A DNA stretch of 64,000 bases from Clavibacter michiganensis subsp. insidiosus (GTDB lineage: Bacteria > Actinomycetota > Actinomycetes > Actinomycetales > Microbacteriaceae), in contig NZ_MZMO01000001.1 in assembly GCF_002240565.1 (NCBI RefSeq), positions 2,418,001 to 2,482,000 of the forward strand. Reading direction: 5' to 3'. Positions 18,381 through 32,437 of the stretch are shown here, one piece after another; position 1 is the first letter of the stretch, and every line of letters begins with the position of its first letter. Under the pieces are notes generated by a model. That model was given only the letters and a program-made list of their open reading frames with translations, had not been told where the DNA came from and searched no databases. The position numbers and the translations under genes are program-made.

Positions 18381-18398
18381 CGCTCTCCCGCACGACCA

Positions 18399-18433
18399 CG
18401 ACGCCCGCTCCCGGATCCGGGGGCGGGCGTCGT
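18399..18433 (+). terminator. Terminator after terC
   Basis: A GC-rich stem (CGACGCCCGC and its complement) encloses a GGATCC-containing loop, starting about 18 bases past the stop. Confidence 0.7.
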
Positions 18434-18497
18434 CGTGCGTGCCGCCGTCGCACACTTTCGTGGAGACCCGCGGAGGCTCCCGGCGTACGGTCGGACC

Positions 18498-19508
18498 ATG
18501 GAATTCAGATACCTCGGCAACTCCGGCTTCAAGATCTCCGAGATCACCTACGGCAACTGGCTCACCCACGGATCGCAGGTCGAGAACGACACCGCGACCG
18601 CGTGCGTGAAGGCCGCGCTCGAGGCGGGGATCACCACGTTCGACACCGCGGACGTCTACGCCAACACCAAGGCGGAGACCGTGCTCGGCGAGGCGCTCAA
18701 GGGCGAGCGGCGCGCCTCGATCGAGATCTTCACCAAGGTCTTCGGCCCCACCGGACCCAAGGGCCACAACGACGTGGGGCTCTCGCGGAAGCACATCATG
18801 GACTCGGTCGACGCGTCGCTCACGCGCCTCCAGACCGACTACATCGACCTGTACCAGGCGCACCGGTTCGACTACGAGACGCCCCTCGAGGAGACGATGC
18901 AGGCGTTCGCCGACGTCGTCCGCCAGGGCAAGGCCCTTTACATCGGCGTGAGCGAGTGGACGAGCGAGCAGCTGCGCGCCGGCCACGCGCTGGCCGACCA
19001 GCTCGGCTTCCAGCTCATCTCGAACCAGCCGCAGTACTCGGCCCTCTGGCGCGTCATCGAGGAGGAGGTCGTGCCCACCTCGAAGGAGCTCGGCATCTCG
19101 CAGATCGTGTGGTCCCCCATCGCGCAGGGTGTGCTGACGGGCAAGTACAAGCCCGGCCAGGAGCTGCCGTCCGGATCCCGCGCGACCGACGACAAGGGCG
19201 GCGCGGACATGATCAAGCGCTACATGAACGACGACACGCTCTCCCGCGTGCAGGACCTCCAGCCCGTCGCCGACGAGCTCGGCCTGTCCCTCGCGCAGCT
19301 CGCCGTCGCGTGGGTGCTGCAGAACGAGAACGTGGCGTCCGCGATCATCGGCGCGTCCCGTCCCGAGCAGGTGCACGAGAACGTCAGGGCGTCCGGCGTG
19401 AAGATCCCCGCGGAGCTCCTTACCCGCATCGACGACGCCCTCGGCGACATCGTCGAGAAGGACCCGCGCACGACCGAGGCCAGCTCGCCGAAGACCCGCG
19501 AGGCCTGA
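18498..19508 (+). CDS. Aldo/keto reductase, Kv-beta/YghZ-like (first of a pair)
   Basis: 336 residues. The AKR barrel carries FDTADVYANTKAETVLGEAL (catalytic Asp and Tyr), FTKVFGP (catalytic Lys), an LYQAHRFD segment (catalytic His), and IGASRPEQVHENV for NADP(H) near the C-terminus. WSPIAQGVLTGKY is typical of the KCNAB/YghZ branch, which reduces aldehydes such as methylglyoxal. It is a close paralogue of the gene at 29691. Its first 25 bases differ at three positions from the element's core site. It ends at a strong terminator. Confidence 0.93.
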   Translation: MEFRYLGNSGFKISEITYGNWLTHGSQVENDTATACVKAALEAGITTFDTADVYANTKAETVLGEALKGERRASIEIFTKVFGPTGPKGHNDVGLSRKHIMDSVDASLTRLQTDYIDLYQAHRFDYETPLEETMQAFADVVRQGKALYIGVSEWTSEQLRAGHALADQLGFQLISNQPQYSALWRVIEEEVVPTSKELGISQIVWSPIAQGVLTGKYKPGQELPSGSRATDDKGGADMIKRYMNDDTLSRVQDLQPVADELGLSLAQLAVAWVLQNENVASAIIGASRPEQVHENVRASGVKIPAELLTRIDDALGDIVEKDPRTTEASSPKTREA

Positions 19509-19531
19509 CCAGCGCTCCCCCCTGCACGACC

Positions 19532-19568
19532 GTGCGGCCCCGCCCGAGACCATCGGGCGGGGCCGCAC
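19532..19568 (+). terminator. Terminator after the first aldo/keto reductase
   Basis: A 15-bp GC stem GTGCGGCCCCGCCCG / CGGGCGGGGCCGCAC with a 7-nt loop. Confidence 0.85.
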
Positions 19569-19641
19569 GTGCATCTCCCGGTCACCCGGCGGACAGACCC
19601 CGCCCCGGGCTCCCCCAGCGCCCGCGGCGTACGCTCGGAGG

Positions 19642-19666
19642 ATGGAATTCCGCTACCTAGGCAACT
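19642..19666 (+). repeat. attL core, 25-bp direct repeat
   Basis: Starts at the old ATG of the reductase gene and is identical to 29691-29715; the flanking bases differ on both sides. CCTAGG sits at its centre-right. The old ribosome site (CTCGGAGG) remains just upstream. Confidence 0.93.
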
Positions 19667-19746
19667 GTGCCAGTGGCACGGTCGACCACAGTGATTCGTC
19701 GACTGACCAGCTTGTTTCTAGAAACGAGTGTACCTCCTCCAAGTAG
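19642..19746 (+). pseudogene. Chimeric 34-codon remnant: old reductase start fused to element sequence
   Basis: The old ribosome site and ATG now read eight reductase codons (MEFRYLGN) and then 26 codons of element DNA (CASGTVDHSDSS and on) to a TAG stop. It is the stranded 5' end of the gene whose body now sits at 29691. A functional product is unlikely. Confidence 0.7.
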
Positions 19747-19839
19747 TCGCTGGCCTCTTCGTGTGGCACGCCCGTGGCACGCGACGATGGATCGTCTGCG
19801 ACCTGGAGCCAAGGTCGCCTCGGTTGTGCCGCGTGCCAC
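19673..19839. repeat. Left-arm integrase-type sites
   Basis: GTGGCACG occurs at 19673-19680 and as a pair with 11-bp spacing at 19763-19770 and 19774-19781. An inverted copy lies at 19832-19839. A palindrome GTTTCTAGAAAC lies at 19714-19725. The same pair and a GTTT-N4-AAAC palindrome recur in the right arm, which is what arm-type integrase and accessory-factor sites look like. GTGCCA-G-TGGCAC at 19667-19679 directly abuts the core. No other gene is seen between 19747 and 19942. Confidence 0.6.
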
Positions 19840-19942
19840 CGGGGACGGGCTCTCGAAGCATGCACTTTTGGCGGCGTGGCGCTCGCCGCGGTGAGTTGGG
19901 TGGACCCCGAGGCGCGTCGGTGGAGCGACGTAACCTCAGGCC

Positions 19943-20792
19943 ATGACCGAGCCCGCCTTACCTCCTGCCCCCCTCCGCGACACCGCGGTCCCGCTGTCGC
20001 TTTTGCCAGACCACGACGGGCAAGCGCTCGAAGGAGCACGTACTTCGAAAGTCCTACAAGGATCGGATCTGGACGCACCCCAGCAGCTTCTACACGTACT
20101 CCGAGAACGGCGAGATGAAGACCAGCCGAAAGGTCAACAAGACCGCGTTCGAAATGGAGGTGAACGAGGTGTGCGAGGAGTGCAATAACGGGTGGCTGGA
20201 GCGCTTGGAGCAGGAAGTCGACCCACTGGTCATCGACCTGTCCCGCGGTCGCACGCCGAACGTCGACGATGACGCTTGGGACCGGCTCGCGTTCTGGATG
20301 GTCCTACGGGCGCTCCTGAGGACCTTAGAAGACAAGGAGCACGTGAAGGCACCCAGGATCCTCTTCCAGCACGTCTACAGGACCCGACAGATCCCCACCG
20401 GCTTCATCGTCCAGTGGGCTCGCGCAGACGGCTACTTCCTGAGTGCAGGCAGGAGCAGCATGATGCTCCGCGGGACACCCAAGCCCAACTACAACCACTT
20501 TGACGGCCTTGTCACGTTCGGGATTCAGAAGCTGTTCTTCCAGGTCTTCATGTGCGGAGGGAGCCTCGTATCCCAGGCCGCAACCATCAAAAGCTTTCGC
20601 CACGTCGAAGAGACCTTCCCAGACACGTTCAATGTCATCCACCCCTACCGGGAGGACACGCTGGCGAAGGGCGCCGTGCCCTCGTACGGGGCTGCCCTGG
20701 TGGCCAGTAACGCTCCTGCACGGGACTCCACCCACTTCAGCCCCCTCGGTATCAAAGGGGTGCGAGGTGCGTTCGGAGAGCGTCTGCGGTGA
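19943..20792 (+). pseudogene. HNH-endonuclease-like gene with an apparent +1 frameshift near its start
   Basis: The main frame, read from about 19990 to 20792, gives CRFCQTTTGKRSKEHVLRKS, then NEVCEECNNGWLERLEQEV. That is the pattern of HNH proteins with two zinc-binding CxxC pairs, where the EHV segment holds the first catalytic His. This frame has no ATG before 20115, and its upstream stop lies at 19944. The only good start, ATG 19943, is in another frame and would join the main frame after a one-base shift, perhaps in the run of six C at about 19969-19974. The candidates are a real frameshift mutation, a base-calling error, or use of a CTG start. The C-terminal 150 residues are not recognised. 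Confidence 0.6.
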
Positions 20793-20824
20793 CCCTCACG
20801 AGACCAGCTACCCCCTACGTCTCC

Positions 20825-21247
20825 TCAGGGAATGATCGTCCCACCGAGGTTGACGACCTCTCCGGCATCACTGACAGTCAGGCGCTCGACCACGAGTGTT
20901 CCGGCGTCCACCTCGGGGAAGGGAGTACCTGTACGCGGATCCGGCTTGCCGACCTGTGACGGCCCCCAGCTCAGGTTCCCGACAAGTCCGACACGGTCTC
21001 GCACCTCGTAGACATGGCCCACGAGCGTGACCGACAAGCGGGATCCGAACTTGATCTTCTTCACGCGCTCCATGACGGTCGCCCGGCGGAGGCTCGACAC
21101 GCTGGGAGTCCCCGCCTCCATGAGGTCGAGGGCACGGGCGGGCGTTGTTCCGTAGATGCACTCGCCGTTCTCGTGGACCATGCCGACGGACAGACGGCCC
21201 TTCCGCCACGATCCAGGACTCTTGCTGCCCATGGTGGCGGATCCCAT
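20825..21247 (-). CDS. Unknown element-borne protein
   Basis: 140 residues from ATG 21247; an ATG at 21232 is an alternative. It is a beta-strand-rich soluble protein with MVHENGECIYG, SRLSVTLVGHVYEVRDRVGLVGNL and LVVERLTVSDAGEVVNLGG. No membrane segment or catalytic motif is seen. It faces the HNH-like gene (convergent, 32 bases apart). I do not recognise the family. Confidence 0.55.
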   Translation of the reverse strand: MGSATMGSKSPGSWRKGRLSVGMVHENGECIYGTTPARALDLMEAGTPSVSSLRRATVMERVKKIKFGSRLSVTLVGHVYEVRDRVGLVGNLSWGPSQVGKPDPRTGTPFPEVDAGTLVVERLTVSDAGEVVNLGGTIIP

Positions 21248-21357
21248 GGCGCGACTGCTACGGCATCACTCCTGCGAGCGGAAACGCTGTGCGTTCTCGG
21301 AGACCAGGACCATGCGGACGGCCGCCGGGTGCCACAAGCTCCCGCGGCAGGGATGCA

Positions 21358-21392
21358 GAAGCCCCGGCGACCACCATGGGTACCGGGGCTTC
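21358..21392 (-). terminator. Terminator after the lipoprotein gene
   Basis: A 10-bp perfect stem GAAGCCCCGG / CCGGGGCTTC with a 15-nt loop lies 15 bases beyond the lipoprotein stop on the minus strand. Confidence 0.7.
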
Positions 21393-21406
21393 AGCGTCAA
21401 GTCGAC

Positions 21407-21964
21407 CTAGTTGGTCCAGATTCGCGACGAGTACTCAAAGCCAGGGGTGATCTCCATGACCATGTCGTTCGGGTCGAGCACGCCATAGGCGACCGTCCAC
21501 TTCGCCTCGCGCCCCGGCAGCAGCGAAGTTGTCGGCGAGTTCCCCAGGCCCTGCTGGCTGTCGTAGACCTCCTCAGACTCTGCATTGGCGCTCTGCAGCG
21601 TGTCGTAGAACGACGTCGGGTCATAGTTGCCCTCGGAGCCATTGACCACCGTGATCTCGAAGAGTACGAAGTTCGGCTCGCTGCCCTTGTTCGCGTACTC
21701 ACTGGGAGTAAACGGCTGCGGTGCGCTGACCGTCACGGAGACACCGTCCGTGTAGGCGAAGGTCTCACCGAAGACCGAGTTCAGCGTTGTGGTCGACTCG
21801 GGGTCGATCTCCGAGCCGGCATCGGCCTCGGCTTCGGCCTGCTCCTCATCGGCAGGCCGATTGATGCCGGTGTCCGGCTCGGCGTCAGGGGCACCCCCGG
21901 TGCACGCGGAGAGCGACAGGGCAATCGCAGCGGACAGAGCAAGAATGGGCAGGCGAAGCTTCAC
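21407..21964 (-). CDS. Secreted lipoprotein, unknown (DUF4352-like)
   Basis: 185 residues. The signal peptide ends in the lipobox LSACTGG (Cys near residue 21), followed by an acidic linker (DEEQAEAEADAGSEIDPES). The beta-domain has VSVTVSAPQPF, FVLFEITVVNGSEG and REAKWTVAYGV, the layout of DUF4352/telomeric-repeat-binding-like immunoglobulin folds found on many actinobacterial mobile elements. It is probably anchored on the outer face of the membrane. Surface or exclusion functions are possible but unsupported. Confidence 0.75.
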   Translation of the reverse strand: MKLRLPILALSAAIALSLSACTGGAPDAEPDTGINRPADEEQAEAEADAGSEIDPESTTTLNSVFGETFAYTDGVSVTVSAPQPFTPSEYANKGSEPNFVLFEITVVNGSEGNYDPTSFYDTLQSANAESEEVYDSQQGLGNSPTTSLLPGREAKWTVAYGVLDPNDMVMEITPGFEYSSRIWTN

Positions 21965-22179
21965 GGGTTCTCATTTCGGGTACTGGGTAATCTTCCGGAA
22001 GCCTATGAGTTGGCATGGAGTACCCGAAGGGCTACGACGCCCCCAGTTCGGGTGCGTGCTTCTACTTACCGCGGCCCTCCCGTCGAAGTCCTGCCCTGCG
22101 GTAGCAGCTCAGGGCACCCGTTCCCTCGCACCCCTCGGGGGATCACCCGCCGCTGAGGGGCACGGGAGATGAGGACCCT

Positions 22180-22890
22180 CTACTGGTCACCCACATCGGC
22201 AGCTCGCAGTTCGTAGCCGAGTACCTTTCCCGTCTCTCCGAAGCCGTCGTTCATGCCAACACGCGACAGCATCTGCCAGGCCCCGTCAAGGCTGGAGGCA
22301 ATGCGCTCCCGCAAAATCGTGTCGAACTGATCCGAGGCGACCTGATCAAACAGGTCTGCCATCGCCTCGTCACGGGCGCGCGAGACCTCCGGGTCAGCCA
22401 ATGCGGCCTGTTCCACGGCATTGAACATCTCGTCAGGGGACAGATCCTCCTGCGGACGCCCGCCGAGAGCGTCCAGGTTGTAGAACCTGCCAGACCGGCC
22501 GTATCGGTCGAGGACCTCTAGGAGGGGACGCAATACTGGGTCCACATCCACACCAGCGTCCAGACCTCGGATGTACTCGCTCTTGTCCTCGGTGCGACGG
22601 TGCACCTCGTCCATGACGCGATCCCACATCTCAGCGATTCCGTGCCCGTAGCCCATCATCTCGGCCTTGGAGGGCCAGCGCTGGTGTTCATCCAGGGAGA
22701 TGGTGCCGAGGATCAGCTTCAGGTACTTCTCCACCCCGATGGACAACGTGGTGAAGATCGGATCCTTGGTCGTGTCGAAGAAGGCTCCTTCGCGAAGGAT
22801 TCGCAGCCCGCTGGCAAGCAGGTTCCGAGTAGAAGTGATCTCTCCGACGAAGACAAGCCCCTGCGTGCTGTCGAGGTTTTCAATGGGCAT
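22180..22890 (-). CDS. Unknown helical protein, HEPN-like features
   Basis: 236 residues, all helical in appearance. LSIGVEKYLKLILGTISLDEHQRWP (49-73) and GYGHGIAEMWDRV (80-92) resemble the paired-helix core of HEPN-type proteins with the GH motif. Arg91 to His97 (RVMDEVH) fits the Rx4-6H ribonuclease pattern, although that motif normally lies in a later helix. It is divergent from the two-gene operon at 22991 across a 100-bp gap. HEPN identity is a suggestion only. Confidence 0.55.
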   Translation of the reverse strand: MPIENLDSTQGLVFVGEITSTRNLLASGLRILREGAFFDTTKDPIFTTLSIGVEKYLKLILGTISLDEHQRWPSKAEMMGYGHGIAEMWDRVMDEVHRRTEDKSEYIRGLDAGVDVDPVLRPLLEVLDRYGRSGRFYNLDALGGRPQEDLSPDEMFNAVEQAALADPEVSRARDEAMADLFDQVASDQFDTILRERIASSLDGAWQMLSRVGMNDGFGETGKVLGYELRAADVGDQ

Positions 22891-22990
22891 GGCGCTGCTC
22901 CTGTTGCTCTAGGCCGGCCGACGACCTCGTTGTCGACAGCGGGTGTGCTTGACGGTACCGGTGCGACCGCGATGGCTCTACCGTGAGGCC

Positions 22991-23764
22991 ATGAGCGATG
23001 CAGTCGAGCCGTTGCAGATGAGCCCTGCGGCACAGGACAAGGCCATCGGGGTAGGCGTGGACGTCATCGAATTGGCGCTCTCGATGTTCCCGGTCATCGG
23101 CGGCCCGGCCAGCGGCGGCATGGCAATGATCCGGGGCCGTCGCGCGCAGGATCGCGTGGAACGGATTTTGGGAGAGCTACGCAAGGAAGTTGAGCTGGCT
23201 GCCCACTTGAGGGTTCAGGAGTCCTCACGCCTCGATGAGGTCGCGTCCATCGTCGACAGCAACGGTGAGCGGTTTATCCCCCTGGTGGAACGGGTGCTGT
23301 CCGAGTCGCTGGAGACCTCGGACAGAGGCAAGCTCCGCCGAATGAGGCGTGGCCTTGGATCCCTGGTTGGCCAGGCCATCACGGACGAGCGAGACCTGTT
23401 CCTGCGTCTGGTGTGCCGCTACGACGTGCTCGAAGTCTTCATCCTCCAGACCCTCGCCCAGCACTCCTACGGCACCCCCCGACTGTTGCCGAACGCGCCT
23501 CAGCTGGTCTGGGACTCGATCCAAGCTGAGTTCCGAGGTGAGTTTTACCAGTCACAGATCCCGTCGATGACCAACACCTTGGAAGCCGATGGCCTGCTTG
23601 TCCGGGACCAGGAATCCCACATGAGGCGCAGCCCTCACGAGCCCGGCCGGTACTACGTCAATGACAATCCAACCTTGGGTCTCACCGTCACGGACCGCGG
23701 TCTGCGTTTTTTGGAGTACCTGGCGAAGGGCGATGCACGGCACCCACAGGCGGCCGACCAGTGA
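22991..23764 (+). CDS. Unknown element protein with hydrophobic N-terminus and winged-helix-like C-terminus
   Basis: 257 residues from ATG 22991, preferred over an upstream in-frame start with poor context. Residues about 19-47 are hydrophobic and glycine-rich (VIELALSMFPVIGGPASGG). A charged helical part (about 50-150) follows. The end (MTNTLEADGLLV through YYVNDNPTLGLTVTDRGLRFLEYL) looks like a winged helix. Its stop overlaps the GTG start of the next gene by four bases, so the two products probably act together. No family is recognised. Element cargo such as a membrane-linked defence module is conceivable. Confidence 0.6.
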   Translation: MSDAVEPLQMSPAAQDKAIGVGVDVIELALSMFPVIGGPASGGMAMIRGRRAQDRVERILGELRKEVELAAHLRVQESSRLDEVASIVDSNGERFIPLVERVLSESLETSDRGKLRRMRRGLGSLVGQAITDERDLFLRLVCRYDVLEVFILQTLAQHSYGTPRLLPNAPQLVWDSIQAEFRGEFYQSQIPSMTNTLEADGLLVRDQESHMRRSPHEPGRYYVNDNPTLGLTVTDRGLRFLEYLAKGDARHPQAADQ

Positions 23765-24621
23765 ATCTGATCGAGTTCGTTCTGCCGGTCGATGTTCAGC
23801 GGGACGGTGCCGACTGGTGGATGTTGGGCGCGACCCTGGGGGCTGCCATGGCGACGGCGGTGTCCGCCTACGTCGTGGCCTACCAGGCTGTCCAAACCCG
23901 CAAGGCGACGAAGGCGTCTGTCCGAGCCGCGGAAGCTGCCGAGCGTAACGCGGAGGCAGCTGTCGCGGCGGCCAAGGTGTCAGAACGCATGCTCGCGCAG
24001 ACTGAACAGGCGAGGCGCGAAGCTGCCCTACCGAAGATCACGGTGCACTGCCCGGACTTCTCACAAGCATCCGTCTTCAGACTGAAGCCGCGCAGCGAAA
24101 CGGGATGGGAGCTTCTGCCCAAAGACTTCCGCCTGATCCACGGCGGAGCTCGCGCAGACCTCGACATGTTCGACGAGGTTGCGGTCCGGGTGCCCTTGAC
24201 CTTCATCAATGATGGGGACGAGAGCGCCGTCCTGACGGTGCAGGGACTTCCATTCATCCTGGAGATGGCGGAGTCGTACCCCCAAAGCACCTGGGTAGTG
24301 CCAGCGCATGACAGCCTCATGGGCTTCGTCATGGTGGCGCAGATGGTGAACCAGTGGGCGAACGACGACCCCTACAGAAGCGAATACGATCCTGCAGGAT
24401 CAGCGCTGCTGACTGCGGAAGTGGGCGCACATCGCTCTGCATCGCAGACGTGGCAGCTGATCGCAACTGGGATGCCGTTCCGACGCGATCCTGACGATGA
24501 TGACGTTCTTGTTGCCGCCGTGACTGGTACGCAGGTGCGCTCTGCTGTGAAGTACCTTGGGTCCGATCTGAGCGAGCCCGTCGAGGAGCACGCTCCTGAC
24601 GCTTCAAGTGGTGACGCGTGA
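23761..24621 (+). CDS. Membrane-anchored protein with coiled coil, unknown function
   Basis: 286 residues from GTG 23761. A single membrane helix lies at about 18-40 (WWMLGATLGAAMATAVSAYVVAY). An Ala/Glu/Arg-rich coiled coil runs from about 42 to 90. A soluble domain follows with VRVPLTFINDGDESAVLTVQGLPF, a pattern common in phage- and island-borne membrane proteins of unknown role. Translation is coupled to the upstream gene by GTGA. It ends one base before the convergent resolvase. Confidence 0.6.
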   Translation: MNLIEFVLPVDVQRDGADWWMLGATLGAAMATAVSAYVVAYQAVQTRKATKASVRAAEAAERNAEAAVAAAKVSERMLAQTEQARREAALPKITVHCPDFSQASVFRLKPRSETGWELLPKDFRLIHGGARADLDMFDEVAVRVPLTFINDGDESAVLTVQGLPFILEMAESYPQSTWVVPAHDSLMGFVMVAQMVNQWANDDPYRSEYDPAGSALLTAEVGAHRSASQTWQLIATGMPFRRDPDDDDVLVAAVTGTQVRSAVKYLGSDLSEPVEEHAPDASSGDA

Positions 24622-24622
24622 C

Positions 24623-25183
24623 CTACTGGGCAGCTTCCAGCGCCCGGTAGATGGTCGGCCTCGACACATTGAAGGACGATGCGAGGTCCGTGGCACCTTC
24701 GCCTTCGTCGTAGCGGAGGCGGATTGCCTTGACTTGCTTGTCGGTGAGCTTGGGCTTCCGACCACCTACCCGGCCGCGCTCACGAGCCGCCGCGAGGCCA
24801 TCCAGTGTGCGGCCCTGCATCATCGCGTGCTCGAACTCTGCGAACGCGGCAATCATGGTGAAGAAGAGTCGGCCTTCGGCGGTTGTGGTGTCGATTTGCT
24901 GTTCCGTGGCGACGAGCGCGATGCCATTGGCACTCAGCCACTCCGCGATGGCCAAGAGGTCCTTGGTGGAGCGCCCCAACCGGTCGAGTCGCGTGATGAC
25001 AAGTGTGTCACCTTCGCGTAGGACATCGCGGGCGCGGTCCCATTCCGGCCGGGAGGCCTTGGTGCCTGTGAAGGTGTCCACGAAGATCCGCGAGCATCCC
25101 GCCACCTTCAGTGCGTCCTGCTGCGACTCAGGGTTCTGATCGGTCGTGCTGACGCGGGAGTAGCCAATGCGGTGCGAGGTCAT
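24623..25183 (-). CDS. Serine recombinase of the resolvase/invertase family
   Basis: 186 residues. IGYSRVSTTDQNPESQQDAL contains the nucleophile Ser near residue 10. TRLDRLGRSTKDLL and EQQIDTTTAEGRLFF (residues about 65-110) complete the catalytic domain. FEHAMMQGRTLDGLAAAR forms the long dimer helix, and LTDKQVKAIRLRYDEGEGATDLASSFNVSRPTIYRAL is the DNA-binding helix-turn-helix. The length matches Tn3 resolvases and DNA invertases. It could resolve dimers of the circular element or invert a segment. Inverted repeats lie just upstream. Confidence 0.93.
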   Translation of the reverse strand: MTSHRIGYSRVSTTDQNPESQQDALKVAGCSRIFVDTFTGTKASRPEWDRARDVLREGDTLVITRLDRLGRSTKDLLAIAEWLSANGIALVATEQQIDTTTAEGRLFFTMIAAFAEFEHAMMQGRTLDGLAAARERGRVGGRKPKLTDKQVKAIRLRYDEGEGATDLASSFNVSRPTIYRALEAAQ

Positions 25184-25239
25184 GGTTACAACCGTAACGC
25201 AAACGGTCTCAGCGTTACAAGGGATTCGGACACGAGTTC

Positions 25240-25304
25240 TGAGACACCTGGCACCGCGTGTCGCGGCATTCTCCGATGGTGTCTCACAGACGATCGTTTG
25301 TCTG
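25240..25304. repeat. Inverted repeats upstream of the resolvase gene, candidate res/crossover sites
   Basis: TGAGACACC (25240-25248) is exactly repeated in reverse as GGTGTCTCA (25278-25286). CAGAC and GTCTG (25287-25304) flank GATCGTTT. The position directly before a resolvase gene is where such enzymes usually bind. A further GGTCTCA lies near 25205. Confidence 0.5.
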
Positions 25305-25339
25305 CCACCGCGGTGGTGCGGTGGAGGACCATGGTCGGG

Positions 25340-25507
25340 TTAGACGGTCGGCGTCTCCCCCAACGCCCACCGGAGCGCACCGCGTACGCCGATGGCATGT
25401 GCCTTCTGGATCAGGGACACGTCTGCGCCGTCTGCGTCCAGCTCGTCCAGCTCCCGGCTCACCTGCTCCAGCTGTGCCCGGATGTCGAGCGTGTTCCTGG
25501 CGCTCAT
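25340..25507 (-). CDS. Tiny unknown protein, second of a tandem pair
   Basis: 55 residues from ATG 25507, which overlaps the stop of the upstream tiny gene (ATGA). It has a helical N-terminus (AQLEQVSRELDELDADG) and ends AHAIGVRGALRWALGETP. That tail aligns with AYVTGVRDALQGVLDDTP of its neighbour, so the two are diverged duplicates. I do not recognise the family. Confidence 0.55.
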   Translation of the reverse strand: MSARNTLDIRAQLEQVSRELDELDADGADVSLIQKAHAIGVRGALRWALGETPTV

Positions 25508-25668
25508 CGGTCTGCACCAGGGGTGTCGTCCAGCACGCCCTGGAGCGCGTCGCGGACGCCTGTGACGTAGGCGCGCACCGTGGGTGGGCAATCCACACCG
25601 GGTTCTCCCATGGCGGCCAGCGCGGCGTTCATGCGGTCGAGTCGATGCTGCAAGACAAGGATGTTCAC
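25504..25668 (-). CDS. Tiny unknown protein, first of a tandem pair
   Basis: 54 residues from GTG 25668, with GAAGAGGAAGA upstream as ribosome site. LVLQHRLDRMNAALAAMG is a short helix, and the C-terminal part matches the following gene. Both are small enough to be regulators or phage-type accessory proteins; no function can be assigned. Confidence 0.55.
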   Translation of the reverse strand: MNILVLQHRLDRMNAALAAMGEPGVDCPPTVRAYVTGVRDALQGVLDDTPGADR

Positions 25669-25698
25669 GATGGTCTTCCTCTTCGCGTAGTAGGTGGT

Positions 25699-25736
25699 GG
25701 CCCTGCCCCGGGAACGTCCATCCGTGGGGCAGGGCC
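25699..25736 (-). terminator. Hairpin, possible terminator
   Basis: An 11-bp perfect stem GGCCCTGCCCC / GGGGCAGGGCC with a 16-nt loop lies between two minus-strand gene groups of the element. Confidence 0.5.
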
Positions 25737-25813
25737 GTTGGCGGGCCGATGAGGAGTACAACTCCCGCCATCCGTGACTCGGCCCTCATTCCGACTCACG
25801 GGAGCTTGTGGGT

Positions 25814-25846
25814 CCCCTCCGGCCCAACACCGTGATGTCGGAGGGG
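25814..25846 (-). terminator. Hairpin, possible terminator of the phage-like module
   Basis: An 8-bp stem CCCCTCCG / CGGAGGGG with a 17-nt loop, about 80 bases past the stop at 25926. Apart from this and the hairpin at 25699-25736, I see nothing between 25669 and 25925. Confidence 0.45.
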
Positions 25847-25925
25847 GTGGGCGGCCACTCGATGAAAGATCCGCCCGTGAAGGTGACAAGCCTTCACATC
25901 GTGTACATCACTGCACACGAATTCT

Positions 25926-26321
25926 TTATTCTTCTTCAGTACCCGCGTCGCAATTCTTCTGCGCCTGTGCAACAAGAATTCCAAACTGCTGAAGTGGAAG
26001 CACGACGTAGCTGTCCTGCGCTGCACGTCGAGGTCGCTTCCATACGGCCGCGTAGTGATCTACCCCGGCCTCTTCAGCTGCGGCCTTCGCCTCGTCCACA
26101 CCCAGTGCCAGGTCCCGCGCCTGAGCCGTGAAGGTGCGGATCACCCAGTTGGGAACGCCCAGGACGTCGGAGGGCTCACGGGGCTGCTGTAGACGCTCAG
26201 AGAGCGTTGTAGGACGGGGCTGGCGGGCCTCAGCTGGGACATCACAGACCTGGAGGACAAGCGCCACAAGCTGGCGGAACTCAAAGGCTCGAATGCGTGG
26301 ATCCCGAGTGCTCTCACTCAC
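25926..26321 (-). CDS. Unknown protein, third gene of the coupled phage-like module
   Basis: 131 residues from GTG 26321, which overlaps the preceding stop by four bases (GTGA). It is charged and helical, with ALVLQVCDVPAEARQP near the start and YVVLPLQQFGILVAQAQKN near the end. No known motif. The tight coupling to the upstream genes implies a shared process. Confidence 0.55.
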   Translation of the reverse strand: MSESTRDPRIRAFEFRQLVALVLQVCDVPAEARQPRPTTLSERLQQPREPSDVLGVPNWVIRTFTAQARDLALGVDEAKAAAEEAGVDHYAAVWKRPRRAAQDSYVVLPLQQFGILVAQAQKNCDAGTEEE

Positions 26322-26710
26322 TTGTAGTCACGCAATGTTCGGCTGGTGCGCGTGCTCCCCAGCTCCCTGCGAATTGCTGCCAGCTCGTCGTATCGTTCGG
26401 TTGGGTTGGTCTTCGCCCATGCGAGTCGCATTCGACGGTCGCGCTCGATGTCCTCGTCTGGGGATCCCTTCACCCACGGTGTGAGGTCCGATGGGAATTC
26501 ACCAACTCCAATCTTCGGCTCACCCCATCGCTTGATCTGCGCGTCCTCGTCGTCCGCGATGGAAAGGGATGAAACCCCCTACGCATTCAAGCTCAGCTCG
26601 ATATGCTGCCGCGTGAGGATCAGGGTGTCGCCCCTCTTGAGAGCAACGTCACCGAAGACGAATGCTTGTAGAACATGGATTCGCTCTCCTGGTGTGGGCG
26701 TGAAGGTCAT
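26318..26710 (-). pseudogene. Phage-like gene interrupted by an in-frame TAG
   Basis: ATG 26710 overlaps the upstream stop (ATGA). The frame runs 43 codons (MTFTPTPGERIHVLQAFVF through HIELSLNA), meets TAG at 26579-26581, and then continues open for another 86 codons (GVSSLSIADDEDAQIKRWGE and on) to TGA at 26318, overlapping the next gene's GTG. Keeping both couplings and coding character past the TAG shows this was one 130-codon gene. The sense half contains RWGEPKIGVGEFP and WVKGSPDEDIERDRRMRLAWAKTNP, a type seen in actinobacterial phage-derived islands. Either a recent nonsense mutation or amber readthrough explains it. Confidence 0.7.
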
Positions 26711-27249
26711 GCTGTAAGTCCTTTGTTTCTAGAGGTTGATGCGCGCAGGGTGTCTGCGAACACACGGTGGCCGAGCTGTTCGAGGGCGTCCGCGAGTAGC
26801 TGTCCGGCCTCTGCCGATTGCGCGGCCGTGGATCCCACCGCGCGGTACACGTCGTCGGCTGCCTGGAGGTCTCGCGCCACGGTGTCGCTGCTGATGCCGA
26901 ACCGCTCTGCCAAGGCTGTGAGGGCGCGTAGCTCTGCGTCCCCTGCACGGAGGGCGGCTGCGATGTTCCCCTTCTCCAGTGCCTCGTCGCGTAGATCGCG
27001 GGCGCTGTTGGCCACCTCCTGCACGCGCATGATGACGACAGCTGGGGACAGCCCCTCCACGGTGCGCAGGGCCTCCTTCACCTTCAGATCCACGTGGGCG
27101 TAGAGGTGTCGCCGTACGGCATCGGGGTAGACCTCGAAAGCACGCGAAATGCGCGAAATTCGTTCGCCGTCGATGGCCGCGCCTTCGATGGCTGCACGGT
27201 GCGGAGACGTGCAGATGCTGCACGGCCTGCCTGCTCGAATTACTGTCAC
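26707..27249 (-). CDS. DNA-binding-like protein with N-terminal CxxC and helix-turn-helix (phage-type)
   Basis: 180 residues. The N-terminus has PCSICTSPHRAAIEGAAIDGERISRISRAF and then EVYPDAVRRHLYAHV. This is a small zinc-knuckle-like start followed by a recognition helix ending in RRHxxxH, a layout common to terminase small subunits and regulators of actinophages. The rest is a long helical region with AERFGISSDTVARDL, possibly a second helix-turn-helix. It is the first gene of the coupled module 27249-25926. Confidence 0.6.
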   Translation of the reverse strand: MTVIRAGRPCSICTSPHRAAIEGAAIDGERISRISRAFEVYPDAVRRHLYAHVDLKVKEALRTVEGLSPAVVIMRVQEVANSARDLRDEALEKGNIAAALRAGDAELRALTALAERFGISSDTVARDLQAADDVYRAVGSTAAQSAEAGQLLADALEQLGHRVFADTLRASTSRNKGLTA

Positions 27250-27314
27250 ATGTATTACTATCGGCCGCTCTTCGATTCAGTTCATCTGAACCTGGGAGCG
27301 CTGGAGTCGATGAT

Positions 27315-28127
27315 CTAGCTGGTACCTTCGATGTTCTTCGTCTTCTTGTAGTACGGGTGACGGTCTCGAAGTCGGTACAGCGCTGCCTGGCTGATCCCAG
27401 TGTCAGCCAGCTCCACCAGCTGCTGCTTGCGTGTCAGGTCCAAGATGTCATCCAACAACTCGATGCCGTACTGGAAGGGCGTCTTGCTGGCCGTCCCACC
27501 CTTCTTGCCCCATGCACGGCGCTTCGGGATGAAGTCCGACTCCCACACCTCCATGGCAAATCGTGCCTGTGCCTCACAGCGGGCGTAGATGGCTTCACCC
27601 TGGTACGCGGCAGGTCCACCTGCTGCTGTGTCTCCCAGACCCCCGTACCCAGCTTCCACGCACGCCTGAAAGAGAACGTCAGTAAGGTCCCACACGTACA
27701 TGTGGGAGCTGGTCTTCAACTCCACCATGGTGGTCAGCTCCTCGAAGGTGAGCTTCCTGTGCGGATCCCTGGTCTCCAAGGCTGCGAAGTCGTTCAGTGT
27801 GCGGAGAGCGAGCTGGGTGAGGACGGTGTTCATCTCGTCGTGCCATCCACCAAGACCCTTGATCCCGCAGTCCTTCAGGTTGTTCCCGGTGATGGATCTG
27901 GTCTTGTAAGGCTTGGGTACTGTGATGGTCTTCTTCTTCGGGAAGGCTCGTGCGTGCTGTGCTTCTCTTCTACGGAGGTTCTTGTAGTCCTGCTGGATGA
28001 GGAGCAGGAGCTTCACTCTGCTCACTTCACCTGCATCCGTGAAGGAGACTCGATGCTCTCCCTCTACTGGGACTAGCACGTTGCATGAGAAAATCTCAGG
28101 CGCGCTCTTATTTTGCAAAACAGTCAA
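27315..28127 (-). CDS. Unknown element protein with C-terminal helix-turn-helix
   Basis: The open frame reaches back to a TTG at 28127. GTG 28079 and later GTG codons are alternatives, and the TTGACT at 28127 could instead be a -35 element, so the start is uncertain. The product (up to 270 residues) is basic at its start (RRREAQHARAFPKKKTITVPK), has a central helical domain, and ends LVELADTGISQAALYRLRDRHPYYKKTK, which resembles a helix-turn-helix. It might be a replication or regulatory protein. I do not recognise the family. Confidence 0.55.
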   Translation of the reverse strand: MTVLQNKSAPEIFSCNVLVPVEGEHRVSFTDAGEVSRVKLLLLIQQDYKNLRRREAQHARAFPKKKTITVPKPYKTRSITGNNLKDCGIKGLGGWHDEMNTVLTQLALRTLNDFAALETRDPHRKLTFEELTTMVELKTSSHMYVWDLTDVLFQACVEAGYGGLGDTAAGGPAAYQGEAIYARCEAQARFAMEVWESDFIPKRRAWGKKGGTASKTPFQYGIELLDDILDLTRKQQLVELADTGISQAALYRLRDRHPYYKKTKNIEGTS

Positions 28128-28222
28128 TGTAGTACTCCAAGTGGCACCTGGGGTTCAACCAGTACTCGCATCGTATCTGTGACATCCATGACACAACGTA
28201 GTAAGTGCCGTGGGCACGAGAA

Positions 28223-28281
28223 AGCCCCACCGGTGAACCCTCAGTGCTGACCTTGGAGAATTAACACGAGCCGGTGGGGCT
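28223..28281 (-). terminator. Long inverted repeat after the integrase gene, possible terminator
   Basis: AGCCCCACCGG (28223-28233) pairs perfectly with CCGGTGGGGCT (28271-28281) across a 37-nt loop. No gene is supported between 28128 and 28411, so this structure separates the integrase from the gene at 27315. Confidence 0.5.
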
Positions 28282-28411
28282 GTACAGGTGGACTGTTGGA
28301 CACCCGATGTAGTACCCAGTGTACTCGATACACCTTCGCCACGGTGCGAATGGAGCGGGTCTGGGTAATCTGTCCGAAGCACCCAGACCCTCGGAACGGA
28401 CCCGGTTGTCC

Positions 28412-29533
28412 CTACTGCGATTGTACCGACTGATTGTCGTGACTCCTGGATACCCTGTTGAGCTCATTCAACAGGGTGTTTCCAGCTGCTGTTGCAACAA
28501 CGCGATCACGCTCGACCGAGGCGTGCTGATACCGAAGAGCCGCGCTCGCCGTGGTGTGGCCACCACGGGCCATAAGTTCCCGCAATGTCGCTTCCTGGGC
28601 CACGAGTGTCAGCGAGATGTGGCGGATGTCATGAAGGTGCATTTGGGGGAACTCGGCTGCCGCTCGCGCCTCCCTCCAATACTTCGCCACGTACCGCCTC
28701 GTGATGGGCCTCCCGTTCTCCAGCGTGAAAAGGGGTGCACCGGGGAGCATCGGGTGCTGGCTGACGTGGTTGTCCACCATGCTTCGTACCGGCTGCAGGA
28801 GCGTCACAGCTTTCGGCTTGCCGGTCTTCGTCGTCGTGGTGTGCAGACCTCCACGGACCTCTTGTACCTGCCGCTCATCGCGCATGAGACCGGTCTTGGG
28901 GTTGTAGTCGCCCCGCTGAAGACCGACGAGTTCACCCACGCGCAGGTGCGCCCCGAACACCGTCCAGACGATCAGCGCCATGCGCTCATCTAGGTGCGCA
29001 ACCACACGAGCGAAGTCCTCGACGGTGAAGTCGGGACGCGGTGCAGTCGCATCCCTCGATGCGTTGGGCACCCGGCAGGGCGATGCAGGGAGGTAGCTGT
29101 AATCCACCGCGGTGCGCATGATCTTCGACAGGAGCATGTACTGGTGGCGACGGGCCACAAGGTGCCCTCGCTTGCCCCCGTCCGCCCACCAACGGTCCAC
29201 CCGCTGCCGGGTGATCTTCGCCAGCGGCACAGAGCCGAAACTGGGCAGAAGCGACCTTCGCATGGTCGCCTCATGCTGTTCCCGGGTGCTGCGCTTCCAT
29301 TCGTAGGTAGGGAGGACATCCGCTGCGAACTGCGCAAAGGTGACGCCGCTCAGGGCCGGGTCCGTCCATACACCGCGGGTGACGTCGGTCTGCGCGGCCG
29401 CGAGGGTCTGGTCTGCGACCTTCTGGGTGTCGAAGGTCCCCAGGGTGCGGAGTCGTCCTTCGGGGTCGCGGTGGCGGGCTTGCCATCGGCCACTCGGTAG
29501 GCGACGGACGCTGCCGGAAGTTCTCTTACTCAT
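28412..29533 (-). CDS. int: Tyrosine recombinase / phage-type integrase
   Basis: 373 residues from ATG 29533. An N-terminal arm-binding region (SVRRLPSGRWQARHRDPEGR, about 8-27) is typical of integrases with arm-type sites. A core-binding helical domain (about 60-165, TFAQFAADVLPTYEWK) follows. The catalytic domain has Arg198 in GAHLRVGEL, a Lys near 237, His301-x-x-Arg304 in HDIRH, His326 in GGHTTAS and the nucleophile Tyr335 in ALRYQHA. All catalytic residues are intact, so the enzyme should be active. It lies 157 bases from attR, the usual arrangement. No excisionase gene is obvious. Confidence 0.95.
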   Translation of the reverse strand: MSKRTSGSVRRLPSGRWQARHRDPEGRLRTLGTFDTQKVADQTLAAAQTDVTRGVWTDPALSGVTFAQFAADVLPTYEWKRSTREQHEATMRRSLLPSFGSVPLAKITRQRVDRWWADGGKRGHLVARRHQYMLLSKIMRTAVDYSYLPASPCRVPNASRDATAPRPDFTVEDFARVVAHLDERMALIVWTVFGAHLRVGELVGLQRGDYNPKTGLMRDERQVQEVRGGLHTTTTKTGKPKAVTLLQPVRSMVDNHVSQHPMLPGAPLFTLENGRPITRRYVAKYWREARAAAEFPQMHLHDIRHISLTLVAQEATLRELMARGGHTTASAALRYQHASVERDRVVATAAGNTLLNELNRVSRSHDNQSVQSQ

Positions 29534-29580
29534 CGTGGAACTCACCTTAGATTCGTTTGCCGACCACCCCCATAACTCCC

Positions 29581-29638
29581 GTGGCATGACCGTGGCACGA
29601 ACGCAGGACAAATAGCGCCGCACTGTTTATGGAAACAG
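29581..29638. repeat. Right-arm integrase-type sites
   Basis: GTGGCATG (29581-29588) and GTGGCACG (29592-29599) repeat the left-arm pair with the same 11-bp spacing; the two 19-bp blocks differ at two positions. CTGTTT-ATGG-AAACAG at 29623-29638 mirrors the GTTT-N4-AAAC palindrome of the left arm. They lie between the integrase start and attR. Confidence 0.6.
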
Positions 29639-29690
29639 ACGAAGTGCTGGTCAGGCACGAACCTTGATCCCCAGGAGTAGGGTGGGTCTC

Positions 29691-29715
29691 ATGGAATTCC
29701 GCTACCTAGGCAACT
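29691..29715 (+). repeat. attR core, 25-bp direct repeat
   Basis: Identical to 19642-19666. It forms the first 25 bases of the intact reductase reading frame. Confidence 0.93.
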
Positions 29716-30701
29716 CAGGCTTCAAGATCTCCGAGATCACGTACGGCAACTGGCTGACCCACGGGTCGCAGGTCGAGAACGACACCGCCACGCAGTGCGT
29801 GCAGGCGGCCCTCGAGGCCGGCATCACCACGTTCGACACGGCCGACGGCTACGCGAACACCGTCGCCGAGAAGGTCCTTGGGCAAGCGCTCAAGGGCGAG
29901 AACAGGGACGGCCTCGAGATCTTCACGAAGGTCTACTTCCCGACCGGCGCCAAGGGCCACAACGACACCGGCCTCTCGCGCAAGCACATCATGGCGTCGA
30001 TCGACGGCTCGCTCGAGCGCCTCCAGACCGACCACGTGGACCTCTACCAGGCCCACCGCTACGACTACGAGACCCCGCTCGAGGAGACGATGCAGGCCTT
30101 CGCCGACGTCGTCCGCCAGGGCAAGGCGCTCTACATCGGCGTCAGCGAGTGGACTCCCGAGCAGCTCCGCGAGGCGCACGGCCTCTCCCGCGAGCTCGGC
30201 TTCCAGCTCATCTCGAACCAGCCGCAGTACTCGGCCCTCTGGCGCGTCATCGAGGAGGAGGTCGTCCCCACGTCCGCCGAGCTCGGCATCTCGCAGATCG
30301 TCTGGTCCCCCATCGCGCAGGGCGTCCTCACCGGCAAGTACAAGCCGGGCCAGGACCTGCCGCAGGGCTCGCGCGCCACGGACGACAAGGGCGGCGCCGA
30401 CATGATCAAGCGCTACATGAACGACGACGTCCTCACCCGCGTCCAGGAGTTGCAGCCCGTCGCCGACGAGCTGGACCTGTCGCTGGCCCAGCTCGCCGTC
30501 GCGTGGGTGCTCCAGAACGACAACGTCGCCTCGGCGATCATCGGCGCCTCGCGCCCCGAGCAGGTGCACGAGAACGTCAAGGCCTCAGGCGTCACGATCC
30601 CGGCGGAGCTCCTGACCCGCATCGACGACGCCCTCGGCGACGTCGTGGAGAAGGACCCGTCGAAGACGAGCGACAGCTCGCCGAAGGGGCGCCTCGCCTG
30701 A
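29691..30701 (+). CDS. Aldo/keto reductase, Kv-beta/YghZ-like (second of a pair; integration target)
   Basis: 336 residues, nearly colinear with the gene at 18498. Catalytic residues sit in FDTADGYANTVAEKVLGQAL, FTKVYFP and LYQAHRYD, and the NADP(H) site is IGASRPEQVHENV. ATG 29691 is the start because it matches the paralogue and follows CAGGAGTAGGGTGGG; a longer in-frame start at 29664 lies in element DNA. The reading frame is intact, but everything upstream of the ATG, including the ribosome site, now belongs to the element. Its expression may therefore differ from an uninserted strain. Confidence 0.93.
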   Translation: MEFRYLGNSGFKISEITYGNWLTHGSQVENDTATQCVQAALEAGITTFDTADGYANTVAEKVLGQALKGENRDGLEIFTKVYFPTGAKGHNDTGLSRKHIMASIDGSLERLQTDHVDLYQAHRYDYETPLEETMQAFADVVRQGKALYIGVSEWTPEQLREAHGLSRELGFQLISNQPQYSALWRVIEEEVVPTSAELGISQIVWSPIAQGVLTGKYKPGQDLPQGSRATDDKGGADMIKRYMNDDVLTRVQELQPVADELDLSLAQLAVAWVLQNDNVASAIIGASRPEQVHENVKASGVTIPAELLTRIDDALGDVVEKDPSKTSDSSPKGRLA

Positions 30702-30716
30702 TCCTCTTGCGCTGAA

Positions 30717-30766
30717 CACGACGACGGCCCCGCTCGAGCAGATGCTCGGGCGGGGCCGTCGTCGTG
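30717..30766. terminator. Terminator after the second aldo/keto reductase
   Basis: A 17-bp GC stem CACGACGACGGCCCCGC with its complement and a 16-nt interior. It serves the reductase and, being symmetrical, possibly the convergent membrane gene. Confidence 0.8.
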
Positions 30767-30769
30767 TCG

Positions 30770-31798
30770 TCAACCGCCATCGCCGCGCAGATCCCTGACC
30801 TCGTTACAACTCCGGACGTATCTACGAGTCAGATATATCGCCGCAGATCTCGAAGCACAGCCGCGAATCGTCCAATTCGTGACGCTCCTTCGCCCAGGTT
30901 TGCGTAGAGGCCAGCAAGCAGACACCGTGAGAAAGAAAATTCCCGCCACAACGGACCATGCCAGGGACGGCAAATTCTCGATGAGCGCCTCGAGCACGCC
31001 AAGCGCCAATGCCGGAAGAACGCATACAATCGGCACGAAACGAGTGGCACGGTCGAATCTGGTCACCGCCGTGTACCTCCCCCGGCGAGTCGTCATCTGC
31101 CCGATGAGATAGATGATTTGCAGGCAGGTGCTGTACGCGACAACGGCCCATAGAGGTCCCTTTCCTCCGCTGCCGGCGAACACGAGTGCACTTGCTATAT
31201 TTGCAACTGCCACATTCGCCCCGATCGTCACAGGCATCGGCAGCCACGCACGACGACGAACCGCCCCCAATTTCTGCCTCGCCCAGGCTTTCACCCTCTC
31301 CGCGGCCTTGAGTTTCTCGGCAGGCTCATATGCCAGGAATCGGCCCAGCTGACTGGCAAGGAAAACGGTGAGGGCCATGGCGGGAATAATGGCGAGGAGC
31401 GAGGCGGCTTCGATGGGTTCGGAGAGGCAAAAAATACCGACCAAGGCAACACACGGCACCAGCCCCGCCGCAAGCCACTCCGCAACGAGGCTCAAGTCAC
31501 GACGGAGACGAGAGCCGTCATGCGGGCCCATCACCCATTGTCCACCTAGCACAAGCACATACAGCCCCAGTAGTACCGGAACGAGTAGCCCGAACAACCA
31601 CCCGATGTGCTGAAGGAGGACACCGCCCATGGCAGCTAGATCATCGAAAAGGGACTCGGAAAAGCGCTGCGGCAGAGATGTCCGCAGCATGTAGATGAAG
31701 TACCCCGAGAGGGCACAGGTGGCAAAACTGAAGCCCGCCATCTCGCGAAGGGACTCACGCACTGACCTGACAGGGACATCCACGTCATCCTCGTACAT
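30770..31798 (-). CDS. Multi-pass membrane protein, unknown function
   Basis: 342 residues with about eight hydrophobic stretches (for example FATCALSGYFIYML and LFGLLVPVLLGLYVLVLGGQW). A basic cytoplasmic loop lies near 165-185 (KLKAAERVKAWARQKLGAVRRR), and the C-terminus is basic. Base composition is clearly poorer in GC than the chromosome around it, and codon use is less biased, so horizontal transfer is likely. No family is recognised. Confidence 0.6.
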   Translation of the reverse strand: MYEDDVDVPVRSVRESLREMAGFSFATCALSGYFIYMLRTSLPQRFSESLFDDLAAMGGVLLQHIGWLFGLLVPVLLGLYVLVLGGQWVMGPHDGSRLRRDLSLVAEWLAAGLVPCVALVGIFCLSEPIEAASLLAIIPAMALTVFLASQLGRFLAYEPAEKLKAAERVKAWARQKLGAVRRRAWLPMPVTIGANVAVANIASALVFAGSGGKGPLWAVVAYSTCLQIIYLIGQMTTRRGRYTAVTRFDRATRFVPIVCVLPALALGVLEALIENLPSLAWSVVAGIFFLTVSACWPLRKPGRRSVTNWTIRGCASRSAAIYLTRRYVRSCNEVRDLRGDGG

Positions 31799-32235
31799 CG
31801 TTTACATCACTCTCCTCATCCGTTGAGGCCGGCGCGCTACGCTCCTGCACGCTTGAGGACGAGAAGACAGCGCGGCTGGCCGTCGTGCGGCGCGAGGCGG
31901 TGACGGACGCAGCACCGACGACTTGGCGCCTTCCTCCGGATCGCTTGCATGTGGGCGGTCAGTCAGCATCAGCGTCAGTCCCTAAACCAACGTCATGCAT
32001 TGCGGCTGGAGCCAAGACCCTTCCCCTCGAACCGCTCCGGCAGGTGCGCACAGCGCATGGCTGGAACTGGCGTTGACACACAGACGGAGGCCGGCCCTGC
32101 CCATCGACAGAGCTCGGACGCTACCAGACCCAGGCGATCGGAACACACGATAGCGATCCTGGACGGGACGCCGCGCACCTTGTCCTCGTCGAGGAGGACA
32201 GGCCTCCGATCTCGAAGGGCACAGCAAAAAGGAAA
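31799..32235. other. Gene-free stretch of mixed composition
   Basis: About 440 bases without a supportable gene. The frames open here have neither good starts nor host-like codon use. It joins the low-GC membrane-protein patch to the tRNA-Gln terminator and may be degraded transferred DNA. Confidence 0.4.
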
Positions 32236-32255
32236 AGGCCCGGAGAACCGGGCCT
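32236..32255 (-). terminator. Terminator of tRNA-Gln
   Basis: Stem AGGCCCGG / CCGGGCCT with a 4-nt loop, followed on the minus strand by a T-rich run (TTTCCTTTTT). Confidence 0.85.
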
Positions 32256-32277
32256 GTCATATCCTGCTATTTCAGTG

Positions 32278-32349: not shown

Positions 32350-32437
32350 AGGCCCCGATGCGGGATCGGGCCTCGTCGAGTGTAGCCCATCGGCCGGATC
32401 CGCGCCAAACCGGCGCCCGCCCGACAGGCGCCACGCG

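What the first reader, a model, noticed from the sequence alone, without database searches (positions are those of the whole stretch)
19642..29715. Integrative element that uses the start codon region of an aldo/keto reductase gene as its attachment site
A perfect 25-bp repeat flanks 10 kb of lower-GC DNA with an intact tyrosine integrase at one end. The target is the first 25 bases of a protein gene, where the element enters at the ATG itself. Most known tyrosine-integrase islands use tRNA genes or the 3' ends of genes. This element also carries cargo I cannot name, so it may be an undescribed family.
Basis: partly seen in the sequence, partly recalled or inferred. Interest (0 to 1): 0.85.

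Follow-up and report, generated by a model that had tools for sequence, protein, structure and literature searches.

The report
Mobile island inserted at start codon
A 10-kb mobile DNA island sits exactly at the first letter of a bacterial gene, leaving the protein intact but replacing the DNA in front that should switch the gene on, and several relatives of its integrase also insert at the starts of genes.

Summary
A perfect 25-bp repeat (19642-19666, 29691-29715) bounds 10,049 bp of lower-GC DNA with an intact tyrosine integrase beside the right copy. The empty site is present in 16 of 17 congeneric genomes; in the 17th the tandem reductase genes have recombined and the site is gone. The right copy is the first 25 bases of reductase gene 2, whose protein is unchanged. 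What changes is the DNA before the ATG. All 35 native starts examined have TANNNT exactly 6 nt before the ATG, a leaderless-promoter pattern; the element ends in TAGGGT 7 nt before it, so it probably supplies a substitute promoter. Transcription was not tested. In the integrase tree, 6 of 9 site-labelled members on the window's side of a 96/94 split sit at protein genes (5 at starts or promoters), and 13 of 13 on the other side beside tRNA or tmRNA genes. Insertion at gene 5' ends is known (prfC, dusA, mutL), so the principle is not new. The lineage-wide preference and the leaderless-promoter swap look new. Whether it is a phage satellite is open.

The parts
19642..19666 (+). left core repeat (attL side): old start codon and first 25 bases of reductase gene 2, now reading into a 34-codon orphan frame
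29691..29715 (+). right core repeat (attR side): first 25 bases of the intact reductase gene 2
19630..19635 (+). displaced native -10-like hexamer TACGCT, 6 nt before the old ATG
   Evidence: 35 of 35 native reductase starts have TANNNT at exactly this spacing; promoter role inferred
29678..29683 (+). element-borne -10-like hexamer TAGGGT, 7 nt before the ATG of reductase gene 2
   Evidence: the only forward TA[GC]G[GCT]T in the 10,024 bp between the cores (4 on the reverse strand); promoter role inferred
28412..29533 (-). tyrosine integrase, 373 aa, N-terminus facing the right repeat (157 bp between)
27315..28127 (-). 270-aa (or shorter) protein with C-terminal HTH; distant relatives in a small element (L117) and viral contigs (L075, L076)
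   Evidence: low-confidence model
26707..27249 (-). 180-aa protein with CxxC start and HTH-like stretch; matches in 17 of 398 family genomes, own included
25926..26321 (-). 131-aa protein of unknown function; relatives in L117, L061 and (weakly) L158
24623..25183 (-). small serine recombinase (resolvase/invertase type), 186 aa
22943..23764 (+). cargo, about 260 aa, hydrophobic N-terminal stretch by eye and winged-helix-like C-terminus; 4 database proteins found, one of them identical
   Evidence: no fold match with E below 0.001
23761..24621 (+). cargo, 286 aa, hydrophobic N-terminal stretch by eye, overlaps the gene before it
   Evidence: no Pfam family
22180..22890 (-). cargo, 236 aa, only sub-threshold family matches
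21407..21964 (-). lipoprotein-like protein (by eye), 185 aa; phrog_806 E 8.9e-5; 41% relative beside a related integrase in L053
20825..21247 (-). cargo ORF, 140 aa, no Pfam family; distant relative in L157
20115..20792 (+). cargo ORF, 225 aa from first ATG; the frame runs further upstream with paired cysteines but no usual start
18498..19508 (+). reductase gene 1 (tandem paralogue, 3 mismatches in the core)
29691..30701 (+). reductase gene 2 (target), 336 aa, intact

Best explanation
A small integrative element, 10,049 bp with one core copy. Its tyrosine integrase recombined a 25-bp attP core with an identical attB core that is the first 25 bases of reductase gene 2 (shown by the repeat and the empty sites; the enzyme's part is inferred). 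Because the core starts at the ATG, the protein is regenerated exactly and only the upstream DNA is exchanged (shown). The native gene looks leaderless (inferred); the element carries TAGGGT 7 nt before the core on its integrase-side end, so after insertion gene 2 is probably driven by an element-borne promoter divergent from the integrase gene (inferred). Several relatives of the integrase insert at other gene starts or promoters in the same geometry: the integrase N-terminus faces the site and the host gene points away (sites shown, rule inferred). Excision would return the native promoter (inferred).
For: Exact repeat and empty site in 16 of 17 congeners. TANNNT at exactly 6 nt in 35 of 35 native starts (17 congener and 1 own gene-1 starts, 16 congener gene-2 starts, and the displaced gene-2 start in the window), and TAGGGT at 7 nt at the new junction. 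From the element's own motif counts, TA[GC]G[GCT]T within 4 offsets has chance 0.001 and TANNNT 0.0066; the single forward occurrence of the stricter motif is at 29678, the junction (motif chosen after seeing the natives). Site class needs 3 changes on the integrase tree; 5 of 1000 label shuffles do as well. Empty sites for three relatives: one alignment spans the predicted core by 15 bp or more on each side in 29 of 29, 30 of 30 and 6 of 6 congener loci tested (gaps of up to 52 in the parC set). The int-side host gene points away in 6 of 6 (identities).
Against: No transcript data: leaderless reading and promoter swap rest on sequence motifs. The new spacing is 7, not 6. An AGGAG 13 nt before the ATG could be read as a poor ribosome site. 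Three labelled members on the same side of the tree sit beside or in tRNA-Gly genes (L044, L048, L118), so the preference is not absolute. Several forks on that side are unsupported, and L117 and L044 are on long branches whose place is unsure. RNA labels rest on a tRNA or tmRNA within 110-247 bp of the integrase in 15 of 16; a core repeat was seen only for L059 and L118, and two of the 16 rows are identical. L056's 12-bp core is one of four 12-bp matches in its search and stands on the empty-site test; L115's rests on one of two 12-bp repeats and lies at the tlyA 3' end. No excised circle was looked for; mobility is inferred.
Confidence: 0.8

Rival explanations
1. The insertion cuts reductase gene 2 off from its promoter and silences or lowers it; the TAGGGT is a coincidence, and the tandem paralogue makes the loss harmless.
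For: Paralogue gene 1 is intact with its own -10-like site; the new spacing differs by 1 nt; the motif was chosen post hoc. In one congener (G008, L005) the gene-2 frame stops after 462 nt, so loss of gene 2 may be tolerated. SpyCI in mutL is a precedent for a 5' insertion that disrupts expression (PMC4701971, passage).
Against: The stricter hexamer occurs once on the forward strand in 10,024 bp, at the junction; TAGGGT is the native gene-2 hexamer in 5 of 16 congeners.
Confidence: 0.35
2. The element is a phage satellite that relies on a helper phage such as the small prophages carrying related integrases.
For: Integrase 39-44% identical to those of L054, L056, L075 and L076, prophages or viral contigs of about 15-18 kb; terminase, portal and head HMM hits in L054 and L056; distant g27315 relatives in L075 and L076; no structural family at convincing E-values in the 11 ORFs scanned; size 10 kb.
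Against: No AlpA, primase or terminase-small-subunit hit at convincing E-values; no helper identified; g27315 role unknown (model pLDDT 65.5).
Confidence: 0.35
3. A remnant of a larger temperate phage that lost its structural genes and kept its integrase.
For: Same prophage kinship; a g27315 relative lies between the integrase and a terminase-like frame (by eye) in viral contig L075.
Against: An 8.4-kb element with the same five genes in the same order exists in G259 (L117); L061 has four of the five (integrase placed differently) and L116 and L161 three, which argues for a stable small element type rather than one decay event.
Confidence: 0.2
4. The repeat is a leftover of the tandem duplication of the reductase genes, not an attachment site.
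For: Two related reductase genes are adjacent.
Against: The left copy is identical to gene 2, not to gene 1 (3 mismatches), and ends at base 25; 16 congeners have both genes and one uninterrupted site.
Confidence: 0.01

Closest known systems
dusA-associated integrases and islands (PMC4482086, passages)
   Same: Tyrosine recombinase; island in the 5' end of a protein gene; putative -10/-35 before and after insertion, so transcription may be kept
   Different: dusA islands replace part of the coding 5' end with new sequence and are reported from proteobacterial lineages; here the core starts at the ATG, the protein is unchanged and the target is a reductase. Integrase kinship to that family was not tested
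SXT/R391 ICEs in prfC (PMC4542580, passages)
   Same: Site-specific insertion at a gene's 5' end
   Different: 79-110-kb conjugative elements; this one is 10 kb and no conjugation family was hit in the ORFs scanned
Streptococcal ICEs in ftsK, rbgA, ebfC and SpyCI in mutL (PMC4701971, passages)
   Same: N-terminus of the target protein unchanged in the ICEs, upstream promoter replaced in some
   Different: Different hosts and elements; the paper suggests an impact on expression, while here a matching -10 is found at the element end
Mycobacteriophage tyrosine integrases such as HelDan and Odin
   Same: Among the 15 listed of 303 phage records with a match; near full length, 30-31% identity
   Different: Distant; attachment sites of those phages were not examined here
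Prophages of Curtobacterium sp. A7_M15 (L054) and sp. MCBA15_008 (L056)
   Same: Integrase 44% and 39% identical, same side of the tree, cores one base before the ATG of parC-type and bioY genes, between divergent genes
   Different: Prophages of about 16 kb with head genes; different target genes

Membership tests
Tyrosine-recombinase integrative element | Identical direct repeats equal to the target sequence | tested here: met
Tyrosine-recombinase integrative element | Intact integrase with the catalytic R-K-H-R-H-Y set | tested here: met
   (residue roles recalled)
Tyrosine-recombinase integrative element | Empty site in relatives | tested here: met
   16 of 17 congeners; the 17th lost the site
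Tyrosine-recombinase integrative element | Excised circle | not testable with these tools
   no reads held
dusA-associated integrase family | Insertion in the 5' end of dusA | tested here: not met
   target is an aldo/keto reductase gene
dusA-associated integrase family | Sequence kinship to that integrase family | not tested
   -
Integrative and conjugative element | Relaxase and conjugation proteins | tested here: not met
   no such family among the Pfam matches of the 11 element ORFs scanned; shorter ORFs not scanned
Phage satellite (PICI-like) | Integrase and no structural genes | tested here: met
   (only sub-threshold matches to structural families)
Phage satellite (PICI-like) | AlpA or other regulator, primase or replication module, packaging gene (list recalled) | tested here: inconclusive
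   no convincing HMM hit; two HTH-bearing proteins of unknown role
Phage satellite (PICI-like) | Packaging by a helper phage | not testable with these tools
   -

The most novel reading that the evidence does not exclude
A lineage of Microbacteriaceae integrases favours gene starts and promoters instead of tRNA genes, and its elements carry, next to the integrase, a ready-made -10 (or promoter) that takes over the host gene divergently from int. Excision and insertion would then switch a host gene between its own leaderless promoter and one regulated by the element, for genes such as the reductase, glgC/glgA, hrcA, a parC-type topoisomerase and bioY.
Probability: 0.3. Interest if true: 0.7.

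Novelty: new variant of a known kind. Interest (0 to 1): 0.52.

Why it matters
It turns one odd insertion into a testable rule: a set of related integrases that sit at gene starts, with the integrase facing a host gene that reads away (6 of 6 protein-gene cases). If the element-borne promoter works, these islands and prophages control host genes such as hrcA or parC, and the sites predict where new ones will land. It also gives a clean case for asking how an element keeps a leaderless gene alive.

Tried and rejected
Same element in the phage and plasmid collections: no megablast match. 22 bases of the core in viral contigs: 0 exact matches. The window integrase alone found nothing in viral contigs; the alignment found 22 loci there. 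Defence cargo: in 10 ORFs no PADLOC match except one weak match of the serine recombinase. Fold of the 260-aa cargo: no match with E below 0.001; PadR-like winged-helix chains only as weak local matches. Fold of g27315 not searched because the model is poor. Rfam at gathering thresholds, 18000-32500: only the known tRNA. PDB sequences: no match for the integrase at 0.001. A special conservation of the attB alone was considered and rejected: both paralogues are conserved at synonymous sites over codons 2-27 (single codon at 23 of 24 and 24 of 25 amino-acid-invariant codons, against 144 of 260 and 166 of 271 later, 18 gene-1 rows and 15 gene-2 rows; L005 left out for its short frame, L020 for running off the locus).
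Full report
What is there. A 25-bp sequence occurs twice without mismatch, at 19642-19666 and 29691-29715; in the 3,387,165-bp genome G000 the only other match with up to 3 mismatches is the start of reductase gene 1. The right copy is the start of an intact 336-codon aldo/keto reductase gene. The DNA between is 62.4% GC against 72.7% in the rest of the window. The host genus is inferred to be Clavibacter from recall and from the name given to one 65% integrase homologue; no call names the genome.

Empty site. A search of the 18 genomes of the genus (own included) with the left flank matched all 18. In 16 of the 17 others the left flank, one core and the body of reductase gene 2 are contiguous; the core is identical in 13 of 16 and has one mismatch in 3 of 16. 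In one of the 16 (G016) the DNA further upstream is longer and different (630 against 133 bp between the genes), but the core runs straight into the gene. In another (G008) the gene-2 frame stops after 462 nt. In the 17th (G011) reductase 1 runs into the sequence downstream of reductase 2, so the tandem pair has recombined and the site is gone. In the 17 congeners the integrase has matches in 4, none above 30% identity.

What insertion changes. All 35 native starts examined have TANNNT exactly 6 nt before the ATG (18 gene-1 starts, 16 congener gene-2 starts, and the displaced gene-2 start in the window). From recalled actinobacterial promoter structure this is a -10 with the transcript starting at the ATG, so the gene is probably leaderless and the GGAGG that touches the ATG is not a ribosome site. 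At the new junction the element ends with TAGGGT 7 nt before the ATG. That hexamer is the native gene-2 one in 5 of 16 congeners, and TA[GC]G[GCT]T occurs once on the forward strand of the 10,024 bp between the cores, at 29678, and 4 times on the reverse strand. From these counts the chance within 4 offsets is 0.001, or 0.0066 for any TANNNT; the motif was chosen after seeing the native starts. I read this as a substitute promoter. Transcription was not tested. On the left the old promoter now reads into a 34-codon orphan frame.

The integrase and its kin. The likely start is ATG 29533; R198, K236, H301, R304, H326 and Y335 are among the invariant columns of 20 homologues. A 39-row tree has a split with support 96/94. 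On the side without the window, 13 of 13 rows with a site label lie beside tRNA or tmRNA genes (two of these rows are identical). On the window's side 9 rows have a label: 6 protein genes and 3 tRNA-Gly (L044, L048, L118). Several forks on that side are unsupported and L117 and L044 have long branches. Site class changes 3 times on the tree; 5 of 1000 label shuffles reach 3 or fewer, and leaving out L115 also gives 3. Not counted: L051, L052, L053 (no site), L062, L063, L071 (nearest tRNA 787-2118 bp away), L065 (fragment, left out of the tree) and the 11 P rows (no context). RNA labels rest on a distance of 110-247 bp in 15 of 16, with a core repeat seen for L059 and L118.

The other protein-gene sites. 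L117/G259: 40-bp core from the A of the glgC ATG to 7 bp before the glgA start read by eye. L116/G180: 17-bp core covering half of a CIRCE-like inverted repeat (name recalled) and a -10-like TATCAT (by eye) before hrcA. L054/G406: 17-bp core one base before the ATG of a parC-type topoisomerase gene, with a divergent phosphodiesterase gene on the int side. L056/G048: 12-bp core one base before the bioY ATG, with a divergent ABC-F gene on the int side; four 12-bp matches turned up in that search, so this core stands on the next test. L115/G157: one of two 12-bp repeats, at the tlyA 3' end with nadK on the int side, the weakest case. For L056, L054 and L117 one alignment spans the predicted empty site in 29 of 29, 30 of 30 and 6 of 6 congener loci tested. 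The searches behind them matched 38 of 39, 40 of 40 and 6 of 6 other genomes (in one search one of the 40, G425, matched only at about 70%, probably a paralogue), and only the fetched loci were tested. In the rows that match these sites closely, the homology begins at the core or within a few bases of it. In all 6 protein-gene cases, the window included, the int-side host gene points away from the element. Empty sites of L116 and L115 were not tested.

What the element is. In G259 an 8.4-kb element carries an integrase and relatives of g27315, g26707, g25926 and the serine recombinase in the same order; L061 has three of these four, L116 and L161 two. The integrases of L061 and of L161's genome fall on the other side of the tree, so integrases and module may recombine. 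g26707 matches in 17 of 398 family genomes, own included. Related integrases sit in prophages with terminase, portal and head genes (L054, L056), and a distant g27315 relative follows the integrase in viral contig L075. No structural, relaxase or defence gene was recognised in the ORFs scanned. A phage satellite or phage-derived element is likely but not shown.

Compared with the known. Insertion at gene 5' ends is in print: dusA islands with putative promoters before and after insertion (PMC4482086, passages), SXT/R391 in prfC (PMC4542580, passages), streptococcal ICEs and SpyCI (PMC4701971, passages). A survey of actinobacterial prophages places at least 15% of loci near tRNA genes and does not mention Clavibacter (PMC10023795, passages). 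Listings for 'leaderless' plus attachment-site words (6 of 6 papers), 'start codon' plus attB words (11 of 11), Clavibacter plus island words (15 of 536 and 10 of 1,766 listed; PMC4059874 passages) and Microbacteriaceae plus satellite words (10 of 1,191 listed) showed no title or abstract start reporting this element or a leaderless-promoter swap. The library holds open-licence papers only, so absence from print is not shown.

Noticed in passing
L116 2841-2875 (G180): An element's core covers one half of a CIRCE-like inverted repeat and a -10-like hexamer before hrcA, so insertion exchanges what lies upstream of a heat-shock repressor gene.
   Followed up: partly
L131 (G406:C167) and L119 (G048:C67): Two prophages of about 16 kb in Curtobacterium with cores one base before the ATG of a parC-type topoisomerase gene and of bioY.
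   Followed up: yes
L021 (G011): The tandem reductase genes have recombined into one, which removes the attachment site.
   Followed up: partly
L020 (G016): 630 bp instead of 133 bp between the two reductase genes, without the element.
   Followed up: no
L005 (G008): The frame of reductase gene 2 stops after 462 nt in this congener.
   Followed up: no
window 19960-20114: The frame of cargo ORF 20115-20792 continues upstream with paired cysteines but has no usual start; possibly broken.
   Followed up: no
window 31001-32000: Second local drop in GC (0.61) just downstream, over a membrane-protein-like ORF.
   Followed up: no
L118 1341-1382 (G321:C2): A related integrase's element repeats 42 bp of the 5' part of a tRNA-Gly gene, not the usual 3' end.
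   Followed up: no
L044 (G113): The integrase frame of this relative contains one in-frame TAG.
   Followed up: no
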